From: Candidatus Methanoperedens nitratireducens
GTDB lineage: Archaea > Halobacteriota > Methanosarcinia > Methanosarcinales > Methanoperedenaceae
Direction: 5' to 3'
Length of the DNA stretch: 64,000 bases
Assembly (NCBI RefSeq): GCF_000685155.1
Contig: NZ_JMIY01000004.1
Coordinates: 161,488 to 225,487 of the forward strand
In this document: one piece after another, positions 2,745 through 60,612 of the stretch
How positions within the stretch are numbered: position 1 is the stretch's first letter
How the letters are laid out: each line of letters starts with the position of its first letter
Translations under genes and position numbers: made by a program
Notes under the pieces: model-generated
What the model saw: the letters and a program-made list of their open reading frames with translations, nothing else
Told to the model about the DNA's origin: nothing
Databases searched by the model: none

Positions 2745-5426
2745 TTGCTTAAGATCAGTAACCCACAACCATGTATGCCTGAGACCGTAAAAATAGTAAT
2801 GAATACTACAGGAGATATTAACAGTTCTATTAGCAGTCCTTACAGCAGAATATCACTGGCATGCAGTGCCATAGCAGCAGGTCTCGGTATCCTTGTGATG
2901 ATAGGCTGGATTACTGGTATGCCCAACCTTGCCAGCTTTGTCTCTGACTCAATCCCGCAGGCTCCCGGCGCGGCGCTTGCATTTATACTGCTTGGAAGTG
3001 CATGGTTTTTCCATATATTCTATGTCTCACGCAGGTCAGCCAGGATGTATGTACTTGCTTCAGCGCTTTTTGTTTTGATTATAGCACTCCTGAACCTGAT
3101 CCGGTTTCTCACAGGCTTTGATGCAGGCATTGAAGAGTTTCTGATTCGAAGGGTACTGGCTCTCGATCCAGGTATATACGGCGCAGGACCCATGTCTCCC
3201 ATTACTGCTGCCAACTTTGTCCTTATCTCTACAGCAATGATCCTGCTGCTTACACCCCTGCGTCGTGCCACGGGGTTATATGCAGGTCTGGCATCTATTT
3301 TAGCATCCATTGCGGTATCGGTGAACCTGGTGGTCTTATTGGGGTATCTATACGGTACGCCTGTACTTTACGGTGAGGATATAAGACCGACATCGCTTCC
3401 TTCTGGAGTGACATTTGTATTTCTGGGCGCTGGACTTATAGCTGCAGCAGGTCCGGATCACTTTCCCCTGCGATTGCTGGCCGGTCCATCAGTGCGCGCG
3501 CTCCTGCTGCGCTACTTTTTTCTGGTGATATTTGTTTTTGCCCTGGCTCATGCTGTTATTTATAACCTGTTCTCACAGCTAATTATAAACGTGGCGCTTA
3601 GAACAGCACTGACTGTAGTAATCTCTGCGGTAGTTACCGTCATTGTTGTTTCACAGCTATCACGGACCATAGGCGGTGCTATAGATCGCGCGGAGGCAGA
3701 GCGCAGGAGAGCTGAGGAGTCGCTGCGAAGAGCATACGATGAGCTGGAGATACGGGTTCAGGAACGGACGGCGGAACTGGCAGAGGCTAACGAAGCCTTG
3801 CTGACTGAAATTACAGAGCGCAAGAGAGCAGAGGAGGAGCGTGAGCGGCTGTACCGCGAGGCTCAAGCTGCGCGAGAGCAGGTAATCACAATTCTCGAGA
3901 GCATAACAGATGCGTTCCTGTCTTTCGATCACCAGTGGAAGGTGGTTTACATGAATAAAACGGCCGAGCAGCTCCTTCATAAGAGGCGCAGCGAACTTAC
4001 AGGCAGGGTATACTGGGAGGTATTCCCGGATGCTGTAGATACGATAGGCTACATCGAGCTTCACAGGGCAGTTGCCGGGAATATAACAGTCGAATACGAG
4101 CAATTCTACCCGCCTCTTGATACATGGTTCGAGGCCAGGGGCTACCCTTCCAGGGACGGCATAAATGTTTTCTTCCGAGACATAACAGAGCGCAAACGGA
4201 CTGAGGAAGAGAGACTAAGGGCAAAGGAGCTGAGCGATGCTCTCAATAGCATCAATACTGCCATAAATTCAACGCTTGATTTCGATGAGATAATGCGGCG
4301 GGTTATTGTGGAGTCTGCAAAGGCGATAGGCTGCGAGACGGCCACAATAACCCTTCACGAGGGCGATAGCTGGATAGTACGGTACATCTATGGTTTTCCG
4401 GATGAGTTGATCGGTTCGCGCTATACCGATGAAGAGGTACCGCACGGCGTACTGGCCGCACAATCTAAACAACCTGTTATAATCAACGATGCCTACACCG
4501 ATGAAAGAGTTAACCGCGAGGTAATGGAGAGGTACGGCATTCGCTCCGTTCTGGTAATACCACTGGTAGTGAGAGAAAGGGTTATCGGCCTTATTTATTT
4601 TAACTACCACTCAGTCCCAAAAGCCTTTGCACCTGCGCAGGTTGACTTTGCGAATAAACTTGCTGCATCGACCTCACTTGCCCTTGAGAATGTCCGTCTC
4701 TATGCAGAGCGTGAGCGGTATATAGCCGATTTAGCCCGCTCGAATGCAGAACTTGAGCAGTTCGCATATGTGGCATCCCATGATCTTCAGGAGCCGCTGC
4801 GCATGGTATCGGGCTTTACTCAACTTCTTGAGCGGCGCTATTCTGGCAAGCTGGATAAGAGCGCGGATGAGTTCATCGCCTATATCGTGGATGGGACTAC
4901 CAGGATGCAGAGGATGATCGAGGATCTGCTTGCGTATTCACGTGTTGGCACGCGCGGAAAACCATTTGAGCCTACCAACTTAGAGACTATCTTTGAAGAG
5001 GTTATGACTAACCTTAAGGTTGCTATTGAGGAGAATAAAGCTCAAGTTACGCATGATCCTCTGCCAACTGTAATGGCTGATCCTTCACAGACGGTTCAGT
5101 TACTTCAAAACCTCATAAGTAACGGTATAAAATTCAGAAGAGAAGAGGTGCCACGTGTTCATGTCTCGGTAGAGAGGAAGGGAGATGAATGGGTTTTCTC
5201 AGTAAAAGATAATGGAATAGGTATAGCTCCTGAGTTTTTCGAACGTCTCTTCCAGATATTCCAGCGCCAGTACACAAGAGAAGAATACCCGGGCACAGGC
5301 ATAGGTCTTGCGATCTGTAAAAAGATAGTGGAGCGCCACGATGGCAGGATATGGGCTGAATCAGAAGTAGGCAGGGGTTCGACGTTCTACTTCACGATAC
5401 CAGTGAGAAAAGGTGAAGGAACATGA
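2745..5426 (+). CDS. Membrane sensor histidine kinase (8 TM - PAS - GAF - HisKA - HATPase)
   Basis: The N-terminal third (about residues 30-305) holds eight predicted membrane helices, a MASE-like integral sensor. Then come a long coiled coil (about 310-380) with repeated ERKRAEE patterns, a PAS domain (about 383-485), a GAF domain (about 498-650), a HisKA helix pair with phospho-accepting His679 in SHDLQEP, and a HATPase domain with N box (NLISNGIKF), DNGIGI and GTGIGLAI. It would autophosphorylate and pass phosphate to a receiver, plausibly the one at 7073. The listed start is TTG with no clear ribosome binding site; ATG codons at 2775 and 2799 are alternatives and do not affect any domain. 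Its kinase core is almost identical to that of the next gene. Confidence 0.85.
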   Translation: MLKISNPQPCMPETVKIVMNTTGDINSSISSPYSRISLACSAIAAGLGILVMIGWITGMPNLASFVSDSIPQAPGAALAFILLGSAWFFHIFYVSRRSARMYVLASALFVLIIALLNLIRFLTGFDAGIEEFLIRRVLALDPGIYGAGPMSPITAANFVLISTAMILLLTPLRRATGLYAGLASILASIAVSVNLVVLLGYLYGTPVLYGEDIRPTSLPSGVTFVFLGAGLIAAAGPDHFPLRLLAGPSVRALLLRYFFLVIFVFALAHAVIYNLFSQLIINVALRTALTVVISAVVTVIVVSQLSRTIGGAIDRAEAERRRAEESLRRAYDELEIRVQERTAELAEANEALLTEITERKRAEEERERLYREAQAAREQVITILESITDAFLSFDHQWKVVYMNKTAEQLLHKRRSELTGRVYWEVFPDAVDTIGYIELHRAVAGNITVEYEQFYPPLDTWFEARGYPSRDGINVFFRDITERKRTEEERLRAKELSDALNSINTAINSTLDFDEIMRRVIVESAKAIGCETATITLHEGDSWIVRYIYGFPDELIGSRYTDEEVPHGVLAAQSKQPVIINDAYTDERVNREVMERYGIRSVLVIPLVVRERVIGLIYFNYHSVPKAFAPAQVDFANKLAASTSLALENVRLYAERERYIADLARSNAELEQFAYVASHDLQEPLRMVSGFTQLLERRYSGKLDKSADEFIAYIVDGTTRMQRMIEDLLAYSRVGTRGKPFEPTNLETIFEEVMTNLKVAIEENKAQVTHDPLPTVMADPSQTVQLLQNLISNGIKFRREEVPRVHVSVERKGDEWVFSVKDNGIGIAPEFFERLFQIFQRQYTREEYPGTGIGLAICKKIVERHDGRIWAESEVGRGSTFYFTIPVRKGEGT

Positions 5427-5615
5427 TCATTTATCTGTATCCAGAAGAACCATAAAGATTTAAGTATATCCAATCCACTCTATTATTATGGAAGAATAGG
5501 TCAGGTATGAGATCAAGCACAGGTAGATGAAGTAGCCGCTGCACGAATCGCTGCCATTTAGGTCCTGGTGATATTTTTAATTATACGGTTACTACCATCT
5601 CAGGGGGTAAGCAGG

Positions 5616-7073
5616 GTGAAGGATGAAGATGGAACTAGAGAGCAAATATGGTATCGGGTATTGTATGAGGAGATCCCATCAATATATTTTACCGTGGACA
5701 CAGATGGGAGAGTTCTCTCCATAAGCAGTTTTGGGGCAGAGCAGCTCGGTTACACGATTGAAGAATTGATCAGGCAACCGATACTTAAGGTTATCTACCT
5801 AGATGACAGAAAGGCTATCATGCAGCAAATGATCGCATGCCTGCAAAACCCAGGATATATTGCTACCCTGGAGCTTCGTAAGGTTCGTAAGGATGGGACA
5901 GTATTGTGGATGAAAGATATGGTTCGCGCTGTGAGGCTTACTGATTGTACAGTTGTTCTCATTGTTTGCAATGATATCACACAGAGCAAGCATATAGAGC
6001 AAAGGCTCAGACTGCTCTCCGAGGCTGTTGAAGAGGCCCCGAGCGGGGTTCAGATCGTTGATCTGGATGGCCGCATAGTTTTCTCAAATAAGGCTGTCAA
6101 GGCGATATACGGCTTCTCGCCTGAGGAGTTCAAAGGAAAGCATGTCAATGAACTGAATATAGATCCAGAGTTTGCAAGCAAGGTGATACTTCCCACCATA
6201 AAAGAGATGGGGCGCTGGTCTGGAGAGCTTATTGTCAGACATAAGGATGGAAGGGCATTCCCTATCTGGCTGACCACCTCTATGATTAAGGATGACAGGG
6301 GTGAGCCAATAGCTATGGTCGGAATTATGACAGATATTACAGAGCGCAAGCGGGCAGAGGAGGAACTGGCACAGCGGACGGCAGAGCTAGCCCGCTCAAA
6401 CGCTGAATTAGAGCAGTTTGCTTACATTGCTTCCCATGACCTTCAGGAGCCGCTGCGTATGGTATCAGGCTTCACCCAGCTCCTGGAGAGGCGATACAGA
6501 GGTAAGCTTGACAGGAGTGCTGATGAGTTCATAGCCTATATAATGGACGGCACATCGAGGATGCAGAGGATGATCGAGGATCTGCTTGCGTACTCACGCG
6601 TTGGCACGCGCGGAAAACCGTTTGAGCTGATCGATTGCGAAGATGCATTGAACCAGTCGATGGCTAATCTTAAAGTTGCTATTGAGCACAGCGGCGCTGT
6701 AATAACACGCGATCCCCTGCCTGCTGTAACTGCTGATGCATCTCAGATGATTCAGTTGTTCCAGAACCTGATCAGTAATGCTATCAAGTTCAGAAGAGAG
6801 GAACCGTTGCGTGTTCATATCTCGGACGGGAGGAAAGGAGATGAATGGGTCTTTTCTGTGAAGGATAACGGCATAGGCATAGCCCCTGAGTTCATGGGAC
6901 GTCTTTTCCAGATATTCCAGCGCGAGTATACTAGTGAATACCCTGGTACAGGCATAGGACTTGCGATATGCAAGAGGATTGTGGAACGTCACAGCGGCAG
7001 GATATGGGCTGAATCTGTACAAGGCAGAGGTTCGACGTTCTACTTCACAATACCAGTAAGGGGAGATGGATAA
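5616..7073 (+). CDS. Soluble PAS-PAS histidine kinase
   Basis: I chose the GTG at 5616 because AGGGGGT at 5602-5608 sits seven bases upstream; the frame stays open back to a GTG at 5568. Two PAS domains (about residues 15-130 and 130-250) are followed by a short coiled coil, HisKA with the phospho-accepting His in SHDLQEP (about residue 274) and HATPase with NLISNAIKF, DNGIGI and GTGIGLAI boxes. No membrane helix is present, so it works in the cytoplasm. From ARSNAELEQF onward it closely copies the upstream kinase, which indicates duplication. Its TAA stop overlaps the ATG of the receiver gene (TAATG), so the two are translationally coupled and likely partners. Confidence 0.85.
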   Translation: MKDEDGTREQIWYRVLYEEIPSIYFTVDTDGRVLSISSFGAEQLGYTIEELIRQPILKVIYLDDRKAIMQQMIACLQNPGYIATLELRKVRKDGTVLWMKDMVRAVRLTDCTVVLIVCNDITQSKHIEQRLRLLSEAVEEAPSGVQIVDLDGRIVFSNKAVKAIYGFSPEEFKGKHVNELNIDPEFASKVILPTIKEMGRWSGELIVRHKDGRAFPIWLTTSMIKDDRGEPIAMVGIMTDITERKRAEEELAQRTAELARSNAELEQFAYIASHDLQEPLRMVSGFTQLLERRYRGKLDRSADEFIAYIMDGTSRMQRMIEDLLAYSRVGTRGKPFELIDCEDALNQSMANLKVAIEHSGAVITRDPLPAVTADASQMIQLFQNLISNAIKFRREEPLRVHISDGRKGDEWVFSVKDNGIGIAPEFMGRLFQIFQREYTSEYPGTGIGLAICKRIVERHSGRIWAESVQGRGSTFYFTIPVRGDG

Positions 7074-10800: not shown

Positions 10801-11049
10801 CACCGCAAAGAACGCAAAGGACGCAAAGGAATTTGCTGCTACGCTTTGCGTTCTTTGCGCTCTGGTATGAAAAAGTTCAATATATATCGCATCTTCGACT
10901 CGGATGTGGTTCAGCTAATATAAACAACGAACTGGTACAAACTCGATACGAACTCAGGCTGATGAGTTCGTTTAAGTTCGTTTTGAGTTCGTTGTTAATC
11001 GTCTTTTTTATTGTTATCTATGAACCAGTTCATAGCCGACTTTGCGGTG
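10801..11049 (+). repeat. Palindromic CGCAAAG repeat, split by a nested element
   Basis: The left arm at 10801-10830 is built of CGCAAAG-type units (CACCGCAAAG AACGCAAAGG ...). The right arm, 10842-10862, is its complement (CTTTGCGTTCTTTGCGCTC) but stops short; its missing end TTTGCGGTG appears at 11041-11049, after about 178 unrelated bases. Rejoining 10862 to 11041 restores the palindrome. The host repeat is the same type of structure as the CACAGAG palindromes at 58040, 59456 and 60213. Confidence 0.7.
10863..11040 (+). mobile_element. MITE-like element, copy 1 (about 178 bp)
   Basis: It begins TGGTATGAA and ends TTCATAGCCGA, imperfect terminal inverted repeats that extend further as GTTCA...TGAAC. 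The interior has a second palindrome of GAACT/AGTTC units (about 10924-10998). A close copy sits at 58089-58268, also inside the right arm of a palindromic repeat. It has no coding capacity; the frame that crosses it is a by-product of the repeat. Mobilisation would need a transposase supplied elsewhere. Confidence 0.55.
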
Positions 11050-40795: not shown

Positions 40796-40826
40796 AGCCT
40801 TAATCCCACAACATCTCTATCTTTTC

Positions 40827-41017
40827 GGTCAAATATCATACATGCGCCAATCCGCGGGCGCCCCGCCTCCAGGCGCGCGCCGCCAGAGATGCAGTACAAG
40901 CCCGCATCCCCTGATGGGGACGGCACGCCCCGAAGCTTAAGGAGGCGACACTGCGAACTGCGCAGCGTGTGTCCGCCGGGTTAAAATCCCGCTGCGCAGG
41001 TCTGCTCCTCCTGTGTA
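40827..41017 (+). repeat. GC-rich repeat, copy 1
   Basis: It starts GGTCAAATATCATACATGCG, followed by a GC-rich body with CGCCCCGCCTCCAGGCGCGC, GTACAAGCCCGCATCCCCTG and GGGGAC, and ends GGTCTGCTCCTCCTGTGTA. It carries an extra 35 bases near 40966-41000 bounded by CTGCGCAG direct repeats, lacking in copy 3. The reading frame is not kept between copies, so it is non-coding. It stands directly before the radical SAM gene. Confidence 0.75.
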
Positions 41018-41102
41018 AAGACCAAAACAAGTAAGGGATTGAAAGCCGTAGTTCAAGTTAAGTGCAAAAAGAATATAACGATTCAGATGCTTTAGCCCGG
41101 CG

Positions 41103-42602
41103 ATGCGTGTAATTCTTGCCACACCGCCGGAGTACAGGCAATTGACCACCCCAGCCCAGGTGCTTGGTCCTCCGATAGGTCTCCTGTATATAGCCTCTTA
41201 TGCAAGGCATTACGGGTATTTAAGCCGCACAAAAAGTGTACTTGAGGTATTCGATGCCTTCACTCTCCATATGAAACATGAGAGATTTGTTAAGAATATT
41301 GTCATGAAGAAGCCGGATGTTCTGGGAGTCTCAGTAACTTCAAGGATGTTCCCTGTAACAATGGCAAGCCTGGAAAAGATTCACGCCGCTTTGCCCGAAA
41401 CCAGGATTGTTCTCGGTGGAATACACCCTACCTTCATGGCTGAAAATATAGTTAAGACATTCCCGTTTGTCGATTGTGTGATCAAAGGAGAGGCTGAGCG
41501 CTCCTTCTCAGAACTTCTCATTTCTTACTCAGATAACGACCAAGATATTTCGCATATTAGGGGAATTACTGCCTTAAGGGACGATAAGATCATAGACAGC
41601 GAGCCTGACACAATAATGGATATTGACGAGATTCCATTCCCTGCACGGGACCTCGTAGAAGATATCAGCTACGGGTACACATGGAACGGGCTTGATCTTA
41701 CATTTGGAAAATTCACCTCAATAGTGACGGGGAGAGGCTGCCCTTTTGCATGCAACTTTTGTACCAACTGGAGATTCTCTAACAGGCAGCTAAGAATAAG
41801 GTCTGTCGAAAATGTAGTTTCCGAGCTTGAACTCCTCAAAACCCAGGGATACGGGTCATGCGTAATACTCGATGACATTTTTACAGCCGACAAGGAACGT
41901 GTAAAGAAAATATGCGAGGAAATCAAGAGAAGGGATATAGATATCGTACTGTACTGTGAGGGGAGAGTTGATACAGCCGACCCTGAAATGTTCAGGAACA
42001 TGAAAGAGGCTGGTTTCTCTTCAATACTGTTCGGAGTGGAGAGTGGGTCACAAAAAATACTGGATTATTATCAAAAGCATACCACTCCAGCCCAGGCAAA
42101 AATCGCAGTCGCTAATGCAAAAGCAGCAGACCTTCTCGTTATCGGGGCGTTCATTATCGGAGCGCCTGTAGAGACGATAGATGACCTGAAAGAAACACTT
42201 GCACACATATCTGAGCTGGACTTCGATGCACTCGAGGTCAATGCACTTGGAATAGCACCATGGGATATGCTGTATGTAAAAGCCATGAATGCCGGAAAAG
42301 TCGGCAGGGAAGACTGGATGAGGGACCACTTAGTTTCAGATTATTATGATAACCTGACAAAAGAAGATATAGCAAAATGGGTAGAAAAAGCATATTATGC
42401 GTTCTTTAGGACGGATTTTGTTCACATCCTCAGGAGAACTATCAAATTCATTAGCAGTCGTGATGGCAGGAATGCAATAGTAAAGAATCTCATGAATCCT
42501 TATTTATGGCGCCTTGTTCTGGAGCGCGGAAAACCGAGACATAAGATTGAGGAGATTTTAATGCTGGGGACTGAAACAATGCATTCCATCTCGGTGAAAT
42601 AA
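41103..42602 (+). CDS. B12-binding-domain radical SAM protein
   Basis: 499 residues. The N-terminal third (to about 145) is a cobalamin-binding Rossmann domain (PPEYRQLTTPAQVLGPPIG, VLGGIHPTFMAE). The radical SAM core has CPFACNFC (about residues 213-220) for the 4Fe-4S cluster, then LDDIFT, EGRVD and FGVESGSQ. The C-terminal domain, about 130 residues, is of the type that sets substrate choice. Such enzymes methylate or rearrange unactivated carbons in lipids, cofactors or peptides; the substrate is unknown. It lies between GC-rich repeat copies 1 and 2. Confidence 0.85.
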   Translation: MRVILATPPEYRQLTTPAQVLGPPIGLLYIASYARHYGYLSRTKSVLEVFDAFTLHMKHERFVKNIVMKKPDVLGVSVTSRMFPVTMASLEKIHAALPETRIVLGGIHPTFMAENIVKTFPFVDCVIKGEAERSFSELLISYSDNDQDISHIRGITALRDDKIIDSEPDTIMDIDEIPFPARDLVEDISYGYTWNGLDLTFGKFTSIVTGRGCPFACNFCTNWRFSNRQLRIRSVENVVSELELLKTQGYGSCVILDDIFTADKERVKKICEEIKRRDIDIVLYCEGRVDTADPEMFRNMKEAGFSSILFGVESGSQKILDYYQKHTTPAQAKIAVANAKAADLLVIGAFIIGAPVETIDDLKETLAHISELDFDALEVNALGIAPWDMLYVKAMNAGKVGREDWMRDHLVSDYYDNLTKEDIAKWVEKAYYAFFRTDFVHILRRTIKFISSRDGRNAIVKNLMNPYLWRLVLERGKPRHKIEEILMLGTETMHSISVK

Positions 42603-42646
42603 TGCATAGAGTAATACTCTCATAAAAAACATCTCCCCATATCAAT

Positions 42647-42750
42647 GGTCAATTATCGTACATGCGCCAATCCGCGAGCGCCCCGCCTCCAGGCGCGCCG
42701 CCAGAGGTGCAGTACAAGCCCGCATCCCCTGATGGGGATGGCGCGCCAGG
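42647..42750 (+). repeat. GC-rich repeat, copy 2 (short form)
   Basis: It shares the GGTCAATTATCGTACATGCG start and the GC-rich body with copies 1 and 3. It holds a perfect hairpin, ATCCCC-TGAT-GGGGAT, but lacks the later CTGCTCCTCCTGTGTA end. It has two fewer bases in the GCGCGC run, which changes the frame. It lies immediately before the first vapBC pair. Confidence 0.75.
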
Positions 42751-42821
42751 GAGCGACGAAGCGGAGAACAAGAAAGAAATAAACCTATTTAAGCCATTAA
42801 GATCATTGGATTTGTGAGAAT

Positions 42822-43046
42822 ATGAACTCTGAATTAGATTCAACTATGGTTGATGACATGCCGCAAGGCGTTGTAAAGGCAACAATTCAGCTTGCAGTTT
42901 TCAAAGCCAAAAAATCTCCTCTCATCGAGTATATGCAGAAAAACATAAAGAGGGAAGTTGATATTAATGAGGTCAGAAGCAGGCTTGCAAAAATAAGTGG
43001 TTCTCTTTCACAAGAAATAATCGAAGGCAGAGCTGAAAGAACATGA
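42822..43046 (+). CDS. VapB-like antitoxin (module 1)
   Basis: 74 residues, short and charged, whose stop overlaps the start of a PIN-domain toxin (ATGA). The N-terminal half has strand-like PQGVVKATIQLAVFKAKKS; the C-terminal half is a helix (EVRSRLAKISGSLSQEI) of the kind that wraps around the toxin. The family is not one of the best known VapB types, so the call rests on coupling to the PIN gene. Confidence 0.7.
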   Translation: MNSELDSTMVDDMPQGVVKATIQLAVFKAKKSPLIEYMQKNIKREVDINEVRSRLAKISGSLSQEIIEGRAERT

Positions 43047-43477
43047 AGTTCTATTTTCTTGATACAAGCGCGCTTGTGAAGAGGTATCATTATGAAAAAG
43101 GAACGGACAAGATAGATAAGATTTTTTCTGAAGACGATAGGGCAATAGTTATCTCAAGCATATCCCTAATCGAGATGGTCTCCGCGCTTAACAGGAAGAA
43201 GGAAGAGAAAATAATATTGAAGAAAGATCTGGAGATCGTGCTATCAAAATTTTTCCATGATGCAATAAAGGATTTTCTCGTTCTTGAGCTTGATGGAGAA
43301 CATATACAAGATAGCATAACGCTGGTATTGAAAAGAAACATAAGAACTCTGGATTCATTGCAACTTGCGGTTGCTCTCAGCATGAAGGAGCTTAAAGTTA
43401 CTTTTGTCTGCGCTGATAAAAAACTTGTTTCTGTTGCGAAAAAGGAAGGATTGCAGACTATAAATCCAGAAATATAG
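43043..43477 (+). CDS. VapC-like PIN-domain toxin (module 1)
   Basis: 144 residues with the PIN acidic set: Asp of YFLDTSALVKRY near residue 6, Glu of SLIEMVSALNRK (about 39), Asp of RTLDSLQLAVALS (about 112) and Asp of FVCADKKLV (about 129). This is a ribonuclease toxin of the VapC family. It is translationally coupled to the antitoxin upstream. Confidence 0.87.
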   Translation: MKFYFLDTSALVKRYHYEKGTDKIDKIFSEDDRAIVISSISLIEMVSALNRKKEEKIILKKDLEIVLSKFFHDAIKDFLVLELDGEHIQDSITLVLKRNIRTLDSLQLAVALSMKELKVTFVCADKKLVSVAKKEGLQTINPEI

Positions 43478-43520
43478 AGATTTTCTTCTTCATCATTTGC
43501 AGTATACCTTCCGACTTGAC

Positions 43521-43677
43521 GGTCAATTATCGTACCTGCGCCAATTCGCGAGCGCCCCACTTCCAGCCGCGCGCCGCCAGCGGTGCAGTACAAGCCCGCA
43601 TCCCATGATGGGGACGGCGCGCCCCGAAGTGTGGGGAGGCGACACTGCGAACTGCGCAGGTCTGCTCCTCCTGTGTA
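43521..43677 (+). repeat. GC-rich repeat, copy 3
   Basis: It runs from GGTCAATTATCGTACCTGCG to GGTCTGCTCCTCCTGTGTA and matches copy 1 along its length apart from the 35-base extra segment and scattered changes. It is in the same orientation as copies 1 and 2 and lies before the second vapBC pair. Confidence 0.75.
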
Positions 43678-43855
43678 TAATCAACAACAGGCACTTTTCT
43701 TATGTGGTTTTTACCTTTCTAATGCAATTTCGGCAGAAAGTAAACTGATAGAGGAAAAGTGACACTTCAGGTGTAAAGCTGTGGGAGAGGGAAATGTTAT
43801 ATGCTAATTTTACACGACAAAACTTTTAAGTATTACCATTTGGTAATACTCATTT
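43678..43855. other. Promoter region of the second toxin-antitoxin module
   Basis: No gene seen. ACTTTTAAGTATTACCATTTGGTAATACTC (in parts) before 43856 holds GTATTACC-ATTT-GGTAATAC (43829-43848), a perfect 8+4+8 inverted repeat eight bases before the ATG. This fits an operator for autoregulation by the AbrB-type antitoxin. Confidence 0.5.
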
Positions 43856-58039: not shown

Positions 58040-58287
58040 AACCGCAGAGGACACAGAGTTCACAGAGAACTGTTGTTCTATCTCTGTGTCTTGGTATGAA
58101 TAAGTTAAATTATATCGCATCTTAGACCCGTATGTGGTTCAGATAATATAAACAACGAACTGGTACTAACTCGATACGAACTCGGACTTATGAGTTCGTT
58201 TAAGTTCGTTTTGAGTTCGTTGTTAATTGTCTTTTTCATTGTTATCTATGAACCAAGTTCATAGCCGACTCTGTGAACTCTGTAGTT
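58040..58287 (+). repeat. CACAGAG palindrome split by a nested element
   Basis: The left arm (58040-58070) reads AACCGCAGAGGACACAGAG and TTCACAGAGAAC; the right arm begins TCTCTGTG at 58081 and resumes CTCTGTGAACTCTG at about 58269. The 180 bases between are the MITE-like element. Flanking sequence to the right (to about 58380) is a copy of that right of the uninterrupted repeat at 59456. Confidence 0.7.
58089..58268 (+). mobile_element. MITE-like element, copy 2 (about 180 bp)
   Basis: It has the same ends (TTGGTATGAA ... TTCATAGCCGA) and interior GAACT/AGTTC palindrome as copy 1 at 10863-11040, with high identity across the whole length. The insertion is again inside the right arm of a palindromic host repeat. 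Short CTCTGTG copies on both sides could be a target duplication or simply repeat units. Confidence 0.55.
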
Positions 58288-59264: not shown

Positions 59265-59938
59265 TTCCTACCACCACCTCATGCTCTCCTGCGCTATCTT
59301 GCGCATCTCCGCGGCAAATTCAGTAATGTTATGAACGCTTGACAGGTCGCCCTCACGGTCATGGGAATAAGGGATGATGCTGGCATAAGAGAAATGGGTG
59401 GCTATGATGATTTTTTCAATATGTTCTGGATAAAAATAGTTCAATGCAAAAAATCAACCACAGAGGACACAGAGTTCACAGAGAACTGTTGTTTTATCTC
59501 TGTGGTTTTTAATCATCTTCCCCTGGTAATCAGCATCCAGCGGTGTATAAGCAAAATCCAGCCTGTTTCGCGCTACCATGACAGCATCGGGATTGATGTC
59601 TACAGCCACGGCGCGCCGCCCCAGGAGCTTGCATTCCACAACTGTGGTGCCAGAGCCGGTCATCTGATCAAGAACAATCTCACCCGGCGCGGTATAACTA
59701 AGGATGAGGTTTCGCGGGATGTATGGCTACCAGTTGCCCCTGTAGTTTCCGACGTGCGTAGCCCAGTCGCCGCGGTCGGGGAAGCTACAGATTGTGGTGG
59801 TTTCGGGGGTGAAGGTGGAGGGGGGGCGAATTGCGAAATCTTCCACTTGGGGTGGAGTTTTATTTTGGTTTCTCCGATTTCCACTTCCGGGTGGGATTGG
59901 AGGAATTGTTTGTAGTCGGTCCTTGTGATTTCGAGCAA
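59265..59938 (-). pseudogene. Decayed DNA methyltransferase (N4/N6 family), interrupted by a palindromic repeat
   Basis: Read from 59938 down: ITRTDYKQFLQSHPEVEIG, then KWKISQFAP; a frame change at a run of seven C (about 59822-59830); then FPDRGDWATHVGNYRGNW, an in-frame TAG, PYIPRNLILSYTAPGEIVLD and the AdoMet motif MTGSGTTVVECK, then RNRLDFAYTPL. After DADYQGKMIK the palindrome at 59456-59507 intervenes. Beyond it (59268-59430) ATHFSYASIIPYSHDREGD and HNITEFAAEMRKIAQESMR continue the enzyme, then a stop. One frameshift, one stop and one insertion make it a clear pseudogene. Confidence 0.8.
59456..59507. repeat. CACAGAG palindrome without nested element
   Basis: AACCACAGAGGACACAGAG with TTCACAGAGAACTG on the left and ATCTCTGTGGTT on the right. 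It is nearly the same as the repeat at 58040 except that the 180-base element and part of the right arm are absent, so it serves as an empty-site comparison. It lies within the methyltransferase pseudogene. Confidence 0.7.
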
Positions 59939-60612
59939 GGATCAATATTGATCTAATTATTAATATATACATTAATATGATCTAATTTTGTGAAATATAA
60001 TTAAGTTGGAAGTAAGTTGTAACCCACATTCCGTACCCTTTGATTTTTCTATTTTATATTTCTCCTGGTTGCGATTTTATTAATTACTGAAATTAAATCT
60101 TATACTTTAAATTGTTTATTAGAATCAATATGCTGCGAGGTATATAGTTATCTGCAAAACTTAATATAAAAAATTCTATCACCTTTATTAAAATGGCCAA
60201 GACAAGATAATCAACCACAGAGGACACAGAGAGCACAGAGAGTTGTGGCTTTTGCTCTGTGTCCTCTGTGCACTCTGTGGTTTATATACTATTGTCAGAT
60301 GTTATGCGAGATACTATAATTTACCTATACAGACGTAAAAAAATTAATTAAGATATATACTCTCTAAAAGGTACGGAACGTCCGTTGTAAGCAAGTTGTA
60401 ACTATAGAAAAATTAAAAAAATATTTAAAAAAGATACTACGATAGTTGATACCACTTACTTTTATGATTTTAATCAAGTTAAGATTCCTTATATTATATA
60501 AACGATATGCGCTATCTTTTTGAGTTTTAAAATTTCATAGCATAGTTATTTTTACTGAGTTTCATTAAAACGCTACAAAAGATTTATCAGATACCTAAAT
60601 TATTTAATTAAT
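59939..60612. other. AT-rich stretch with repeats before the DUF262 gene
   Basis: No gene seen. Apart from the palindrome at 60213-60282 it holds an inverted pair: ACATTCCGTACCCTTT (60026-60041) and AAAAGGTACGGAACGT (60366-60381), 14 of 16 positions matching, placed either side of the palindrome. AGTTGTAAC occurs near both. The last 200 bases are AT-rich promoter-like DNA. Confidence 0.4.
60213..60282. repeat. CACAGAG palindrome, intact copy
   Basis: 70 bases: AACCACAGAGGACACAGAGA on the left and CTCTGTGTCCTCTGTG then CACTCTGTGGTT on the right. It folds on itself along almost its full length. It is the cleanest copy of this family in the window and carries no insertion. Confidence 0.75.

What the first reader, a model, noticed from the sequence alone, without database searches (positions are those of the whole stretch)
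10801..11049. Small MITE-like element inserted within the arm of a palindromic repeat
Removing 10863-11040 restores a clean CGCAAAG palindrome. The element has imperfect terminal inverted repeats (TGGTATGAA / TTCATAGCCGA) and an inner palindrome. A nearly identical element lies inside a different palindrome family at 58040. Two independent hits at the same place of a hairpin suggest that the element targets hairpin arms.
Basis: partly seen in the sequence, partly recalled or inferred. Interest (0 to 1): 0.68.

Follow-up and report, generated by a model that had tools for sequence, protein, structure and literature searches.

The report
RNA-guided mini-element inside archaeal hairpin repeats
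In a methane-eating archaeon, a tiny DNA element with no gene of its own sits in about 50 places, almost always at the same point of short repeated hairpin sequences; its ends match those of a larger mobile element (IS110 family) whose RNA guide spells out that same insertion point, so it is best read as a miniature hitch-hiker placed by RNA guidance.

Summary
The 178-bp element at 10863-11040 splits a CGCAAAG heptamer hairpin. A 92% identical copy at 58092-58269 splits a CACAGAG hairpin. The genome (Ca. Methanoperedens) has about 47 copies. Removing the element with one CT restores the target: CTYTGYG-NN-CT|element|CT-YTGYG. In the window's genome 26 of 28 exact left ends follow such a heptamer, and 43 right ends precede one.

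The element is nested. A minimal two-hairpin unit (48-63 bp elsewhere in the genus) carries a second heptamer hairpin (ACGAACT) in its loop. The unit's ends are those of an IS110-family insertion sequence found in other Methanoperedens genomes. The noncoding region upstream of that transposase folds like a bridge RNA. Its two guides spell the heptamer target, and they differ between IS copies that use different targets. The element is therefore best explained as a non-autonomous IS110 derivative placed at heptamers by a bridge RNA acting in trans.

Hairpin arms are hit because they carry the guide's sequence: at least two copies lie outside hairpins but keep a heptamer-like right half-site. 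The window's genome has no IS110 transposase today, so these copies are probably relics. IS110 insertion into palindromic repeats is known; I found no report of IS110 miniature elements. Movement was not tested.

The parts
10804..10828 (+). left arm of host hairpin: CGCAAAG x3 (heptamers with 2-nt spacers)
   Evidence: sequence
10844..10859 (+). right arm of host hairpin, heptamers 1 and 2 (CTTTGCG TT CTTTGCG); heptamer 2 plus its spacer is the left target half-site
   Evidence: sequence; aligned with 26 of 28 exact left ends in the genome
10862..10863 (+). CT core dinucleotide, left copy
   Evidence: same position in almost all copies and in full-length IS110 copies L158/L159/L161
10864..11039 (+). 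non-autonomous IS110-family derivative (176 bp without cores)
   Evidence: about 47 copies in genome; ends match the IS110 ends
10864..10876 (+). IS110 right-end donor half-site GGTATGAAAAAGT (RD GG, then TAT)
   Evidence: 13-14 identical bases, core included, with RE of L158-L161
10923..10996 (+). inner heptamer hairpin (ACGAACT x3 / AGTTCGT x3) lodged in loop A of the element; an independent genus-wide repeat
   Evidence: absent from short forms L083, L093, L095 and 14 short forms elsewhere
11018..11039 (+). hairpin B CTATGAAC-CA-GTTCATAG plus CCGA: IS110 left-end donor half-site (ATA-GCCGA)
   Evidence: same end in IS110 L158, L159, L163 and in more than 50 right ends in sister genomes
11040..11046 (+). 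CT core (right copy) and third CTTTGCG heptamer = right target half-site
   Evidence: 43 right ends in the genome followed by such a heptamer
58041..58088 (+). second host hairpin, CACAGAG/CTCTGTG family, part before the element
58093..58268 (+). second copy of the element (left core mutated to TT)
58269..58286 (+). remaining heptamers CTCTGTG AA CTCTGTA of the second host hairpin
59440..59598 (+). paralogue of the 58 kb site without the element (3' arm reduced to one heptamer)
60209..60280 (+). complete empty heptamer hairpin of the CACAGAG family

Best explanation
The element is a non-autonomous, miniature derivative of an IS110-family insertion sequence of Methanoperedens. It keeps only the two donor half-sites (left end ...CATAGCCGA-CT, right end CT-GGTATGAAAAA). 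An IS110 recombinase and its bridge RNA, supplied in trans, recombined these ends with the target CTYTGYG-NN-CT-YTGYG, leaving a CT on each side. The heptamer hairpins are hit because each arm repeats that target sequence. A separate heptamer hairpin (ACGAACT) lodged in the element's loop, and the composite then spread to about 47 loci in this genome. Shown: copy number, junctions, target preference, matching ends, guide-target agreement in the IS110s, and absence of the transposase here. Inferred: the expression, activity and trans-mobilisation of the bridge RNA.
For: About 47 copies. Junction heptamer-NN-CT|GG...GA|CT-YTGYG: 26 of 28 exact left ends and 43 right ends. Left/right heptamer concordance p = 7e-5. 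Minimal 48-63 bp forms with the same ends and target in sister genomes. Full IS110 elements with the same ends in the same target: L158/L110, L159, L161, with PF01548 and PF02371 and sequence homology to IS621 8wt6. The noncoding region upstream of the transposase folds into an outer stem plus a loop with two facing variable segments that spell the target. Guide-flank agreement beats permutation (p about 0.001 for each guide). L162, at an unrelated target, carries the matching different guide. The donor guide tracks the donor in three clades. Bridge RNA supplied in trans with a 22-bp donor works in E. coli for IS621 (PMC11208160).
Against: The window's genome has no IS110 transposase (PF01548 0 hits), and the element carries no guide of its own, so no active source is visible there. 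The 5' guide of these IS110s matches the flank on the transposase's 3' side, opposite to the layout I understand for IS621; the left donor guide could not be identified. Guide-target pairs were read by eye from 10 elements, some closely related, so the permutation p-values are optimistic.
Confidence: 0.84

Rival explanations
1. The element recognises the hairpin as a folded (single-stranded) structure, like IS200/IS605 or REP-associated tyrosine transposases, and inserts into arms because they fold.
For: Most copies are next to heptamers that belong to hairpins; the element itself is full of hairpins.
Against: Only 23 of 39 heptamer-flanked left ends have a recognisable opposite arm within 77 nt; L010 and L021 lie outside hairpins yet keep the CT core and right half-site; a CT is present on both sides; ends match an IS110, not a Y1 element.
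Confidence: 0.07
2. Palindrome and element are one composite repeat that spreads as a unit; no targeting is needed.
For: Right-end fragments nearly always retain a heptamer, even when the left part is lost.
Against: Host hairpins differ in loop, heptamer family, orientation relative to the element (L001 versus L032) and spacer used (L004, L013 versus others); empty hairpins exist; heptamer types on both sides agree; the same junction occurs with full-length IS110.
Confidence: 0.04
3. The element is IS110-derived but the present 178-bp form spread by another route (recombination or another transposase using the inner hairpin), with IS110 only explaining the ancestral insertion site.
For: No IS110 transposase in this genome; the interior is long and uniform between copies; truncated copies keep the inner hairpin (biased by the search core).
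Against: Intact copies at different loci all have the IS110 junctions.
Confidence: 0.12

Closest known systems
IS110 family / IS621 bridge-RNA recombinases (PMC11208160, PMC11208158) and seekRNA IS1111/IS110 (PMC11187229)
   Same: DEDD/Tnp transposase domains, long noncoding end upstream of the gene, loop with two guides, CT core, ATA/TAT near the donor core, site-specific oriented insertion
   Different: The element here has no gene and no RNA guide of its own; in the autonomous relatives the guides appear to face the flanks in the opposite order from IS621
IS110-type ISs inserted in REP palindromes (ISPa11, ISPpu9/10, ISRm19; PMC1525189)
   Same: IS110-family insertion at a fixed point of repeated extragenic palindromes
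   Different: Those are full ISs in bacteria; here miniature elements in archaeal heptamer hairpins, with a guide that spells the heptamer
Prokaryotic MITEs (review PMC10969869)
   Same: Short, multicopy, gene-less, ends shared with a full IS
   Different: MITEs described there rest on terminal inverted repeats of a transposase; the text of the review does not contain the word IS110
Double-hairpin elements of fungal mitochondria (from memory)
   Same: Two-hairpin unit nested in other hairpins
   Different: No homology tested; the mechanism here points to IS110

Membership tests
IS110 family (autonomous partner L158-L163) | DEDD RuvC-like and Tnp (IS116/IS110/IS902) domains | tested here: met
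   PF01548 E 3e-23 and PF02371 E 7e-23; IS621 chain 8wt6 E 6e-14
IS110 family (autonomous partner L158-L163) | structured noncoding RNA region upstream of transposase with target-binding loop whose guides match the insertion site | tested here: met
   consensus fold; guide-flank agreement
IS110 family (autonomous partner L158-L163) | donor-binding loop pairing with both donor sides | tested here: inconclusive
   right donor guide found and covaries in three clades; left donor guide not identified
IS110 family (autonomous partner L158-L163) | recombination by circular intermediate | not testable with these tools
   needs cells or reads
IS110-derived non-autonomous element (this finding) | ends and core of the same kind as the autonomous IS | tested here: met
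   13-14 identical bases at the right end; 27-column alignment at 93% identity at the left end of L163; identical target junctions
IS110-derived non-autonomous element (this finding) | no own transposase or guide | tested here: met
   176 bp without a transposase gene or heptamer guide
IS110-derived non-autonomous element (this finding) | mobilised in trans | not testable with these tools
   inferred from copy number and distinct loci
classical MITE | perfect or near-perfect terminal inverted repeats and target-site duplication | tested here: not met
   only short subterminal TATGAAAAAG/CTTTTTCAT; duplication is the 2-bp core
IS200/IS605-type or REP/RAYT element | Y1 transposase with matching ends | not tested
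   not searched; the IS110 match was sufficient

The most novel reading that the evidence does not exclude
Nature uses IS110 bridge RNAs in trans: gene-less donors as short as 48-63 bp form an RNA-guided class of miniature elements that spread by tracking whatever repeat the guide reads, with guides in the genus already specialised to different targets and with the transposase/guide cassette inverted relative to IS621.
Probability: 0.5. Interest if true: 0.72.

Novelty: new variant of a known kind. Interest (0 to 1): 0.62.

Why it matters
Bridge RNAs have been shown to work in trans on very short donors in the laboratory; these elements suggest that this also happens in nature and at scale. 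They give natural minimal donors, natural re-targeting (CTYTGYG, GAATAC-TT, others) and many insertion sites to measure guide tolerance. They also explain part of the nested hairpin repeats that clutter Methanoperedens genomes.

Tried and rejected
Rfam gave only a tRNA in the window. The exact right-end pattern gave no hit in viral contigs. Some left-end hits (for example C3:292511 and C3:294321) lie in coding-like sequence and were judged chance matches. Automatic typing of the loop filling mislabels some CACGGAT fillings as ACGAACT and calls false left ends in L105, L118, L137 and L141, so only the short forms are quoted from it. A reading as HUH or REP-type hairpin targeting was dropped once IS110 ends and guides were found. 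Distant Methanosarcina-like IS110s were used only for the guide-flank check.

Full report
What is there. The window belongs to a near-complete Candidatus Methanoperedens genome: G000, 3.2 Mb, 10 contigs. It is unnamed itself; identity is inferred from the exact core matches, which are named Ca. Methanoperedens or an uncultured archaeon. At 10804-11046 a hairpin made of CGCAAAG x3 and CTTTGCG x3 is split before its last heptamer by the 178-bp element. At 58041-58286 a CACAGAG/CTCTGTG hairpin is split by a 92% identical copy. The genome search and a 32-nt core pattern give about 47 copies.

Junctions. Across loci the join is CTYTGYG-NN-CT|GGTATGAAAAA...GTTCATAGCCGA|CT-YTGYG. Of the 28 exact matches to the left end, 26 follow a heptamer with at most one mismatch; 43 right ends precede one. 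Tandem heptamer pairs number only 145 in the genome with at most one mismatch, so random insertion cannot explain this. The heptamer type on the left agrees with that on the right (10 and 11 concordant, 2 discordant, p = 7e-5). The same hairpin family is entered with its loop in either orientation (L001, L032), and two different spacers are used. The repeats are therefore hosts, not part of the element. L010 and L021 lie outside hairpins but keep CT and a heptamer-like right half. L084 does too, but it carries an extra interior insertion and is less clear.

Anatomy. Copies without the inner hairpin (L083, L093, L095, and 14 copies of 48-63 bp in sister genomes) show the minimal unit: hairpin A (TATGAAAAAG/CTTTTTCAT) and hairpin B (ATGAAC-n-GTTCAT). 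Loop A can hold an ACGAACT heptamer hairpin, as in this window, or a CACGGAT heptamer hairpin (L088, L103, L117, L138, L142). A group II intron with a reverse-transcriptase-like reading frame lies in the inner hairpin at L081 (identified by sequence features, not by a family search).

The partner. In L110/L158, L159 and L161 an IS110-family transposase (for L110) lies next to the same ends. In L158 and L159 both flanks are CTCTGTG; in L161 the right-end flank is CTTTGCG and the left end is lost. In L163 and several remnants the left end is intact and followed by CTCTGTGG or CTTTGCGG. The window's own genome has no PF01548 match while control genomes do; intact partners at 72% identity or more occur in 5 of 31 genus genomes, whereas the right end occurs in 21.

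The guide. The noncoding region upstream of the transposase has an outer stem, a target loop (stem columns 20-24/60-64, inner stem 35-39/45-49) and a second loop. The columns that vary most are the two strands of the target loop. They read CACAG-AG or CGCAA-AG on one side and TTGCGCC-CT and the like on the other, which is the target with its core. L162, 61% identical, sits at GCGAATAC-TT...TT-TCACC and its guides read CGAATAC-TT and GTGA-AA. Over ten elements, guide-flank agreement exceeds permuted pairing (p about 0.001 for each guide; small and partly related set). The right donor guide reads AATACC-AG, AATACG-AA or TATAGG-AA in three clades whose ends are CT-GGTATG, TT-CGTATG and TT-CCTATG. 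These features are those of IS110 bridge RNAs (PMC11208160), including the ATA/TAT bases beside the donor core.

Interpretation. The element is best seen as an IS110 derivative reduced to its donor half-sites and placed by a recombinase and guide acting in trans. Trans action with a 22-bp donor is established for IS621 (PMC11208160) and with a separate noncoding region for ISEc11 and ISEc21 (PMC11187229). In this genome the system appears extinct or its source is outside the assembly; truncated and diverged copies fit that. Preference for hairpin arms follows from sequence. IS110 elements in REP palindromes are known (PMC1525189). I found no IS110 miniature element in the searches made, which cover only the open library.

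Limits. No movement, RNA or circle was observed. Guides were read by eye. The order of guides relative to the transposase appears opposite to IS621 and needs an independent check.

Noticed in passing
L088, L103, L117, L123, L138, L142, L150, L154: A different heptamer hairpin (CACGGAT family) occupies the same loop of the mini-element in place of the ACGAACT hairpin; how heptamer hairpins enter this loop is unexplained.
   Followed up: partly
L081:330-2890; L083:844-1371; L086 near 2063-2260: Group II intron-like insertions inside the inner heptamer hairpin (429-aa reverse-transcriptase-like frame in L081).
   Followed up: no
L082:311-2391: About 2 kb insertion with two 260-290 aa frames inside the inner hairpin of another copy; possibly a further mobile element.
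   Followed up: no
L166, L168, L170: More distant IS110-family genes next to or inside CACGGAT hairpins, with CTCCGTG- or CTCTGTG-like text in the noncoding region of L168/L170; suggests that other IS110 clades target other heptamer families.
   Followed up: no
L164, upstream region: What looks like a second mini-element with L162-type ends (TT-CGTATGAAAAA...GATTAG-TT) next to a TCAC target.
   Followed up: no
L159-L163, L195, L199, L211: In these archaeal IS110s the 5' guide matches the flank on the 3' side of the transposase, the reverse of the order I understand for IS621.
   Followed up: partly
window 4725-7060 and 40821-43682: Diverged direct duplications of 50-280 nt blocks, probably repeated gene segments.
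   Followed up: no
G000 versus 31 genus genomes: Mini-element right ends occur in 21 of 31 genomes but close, intact IS110 partners in only 5, so most copies may be orphaned.
   Followed up: partly
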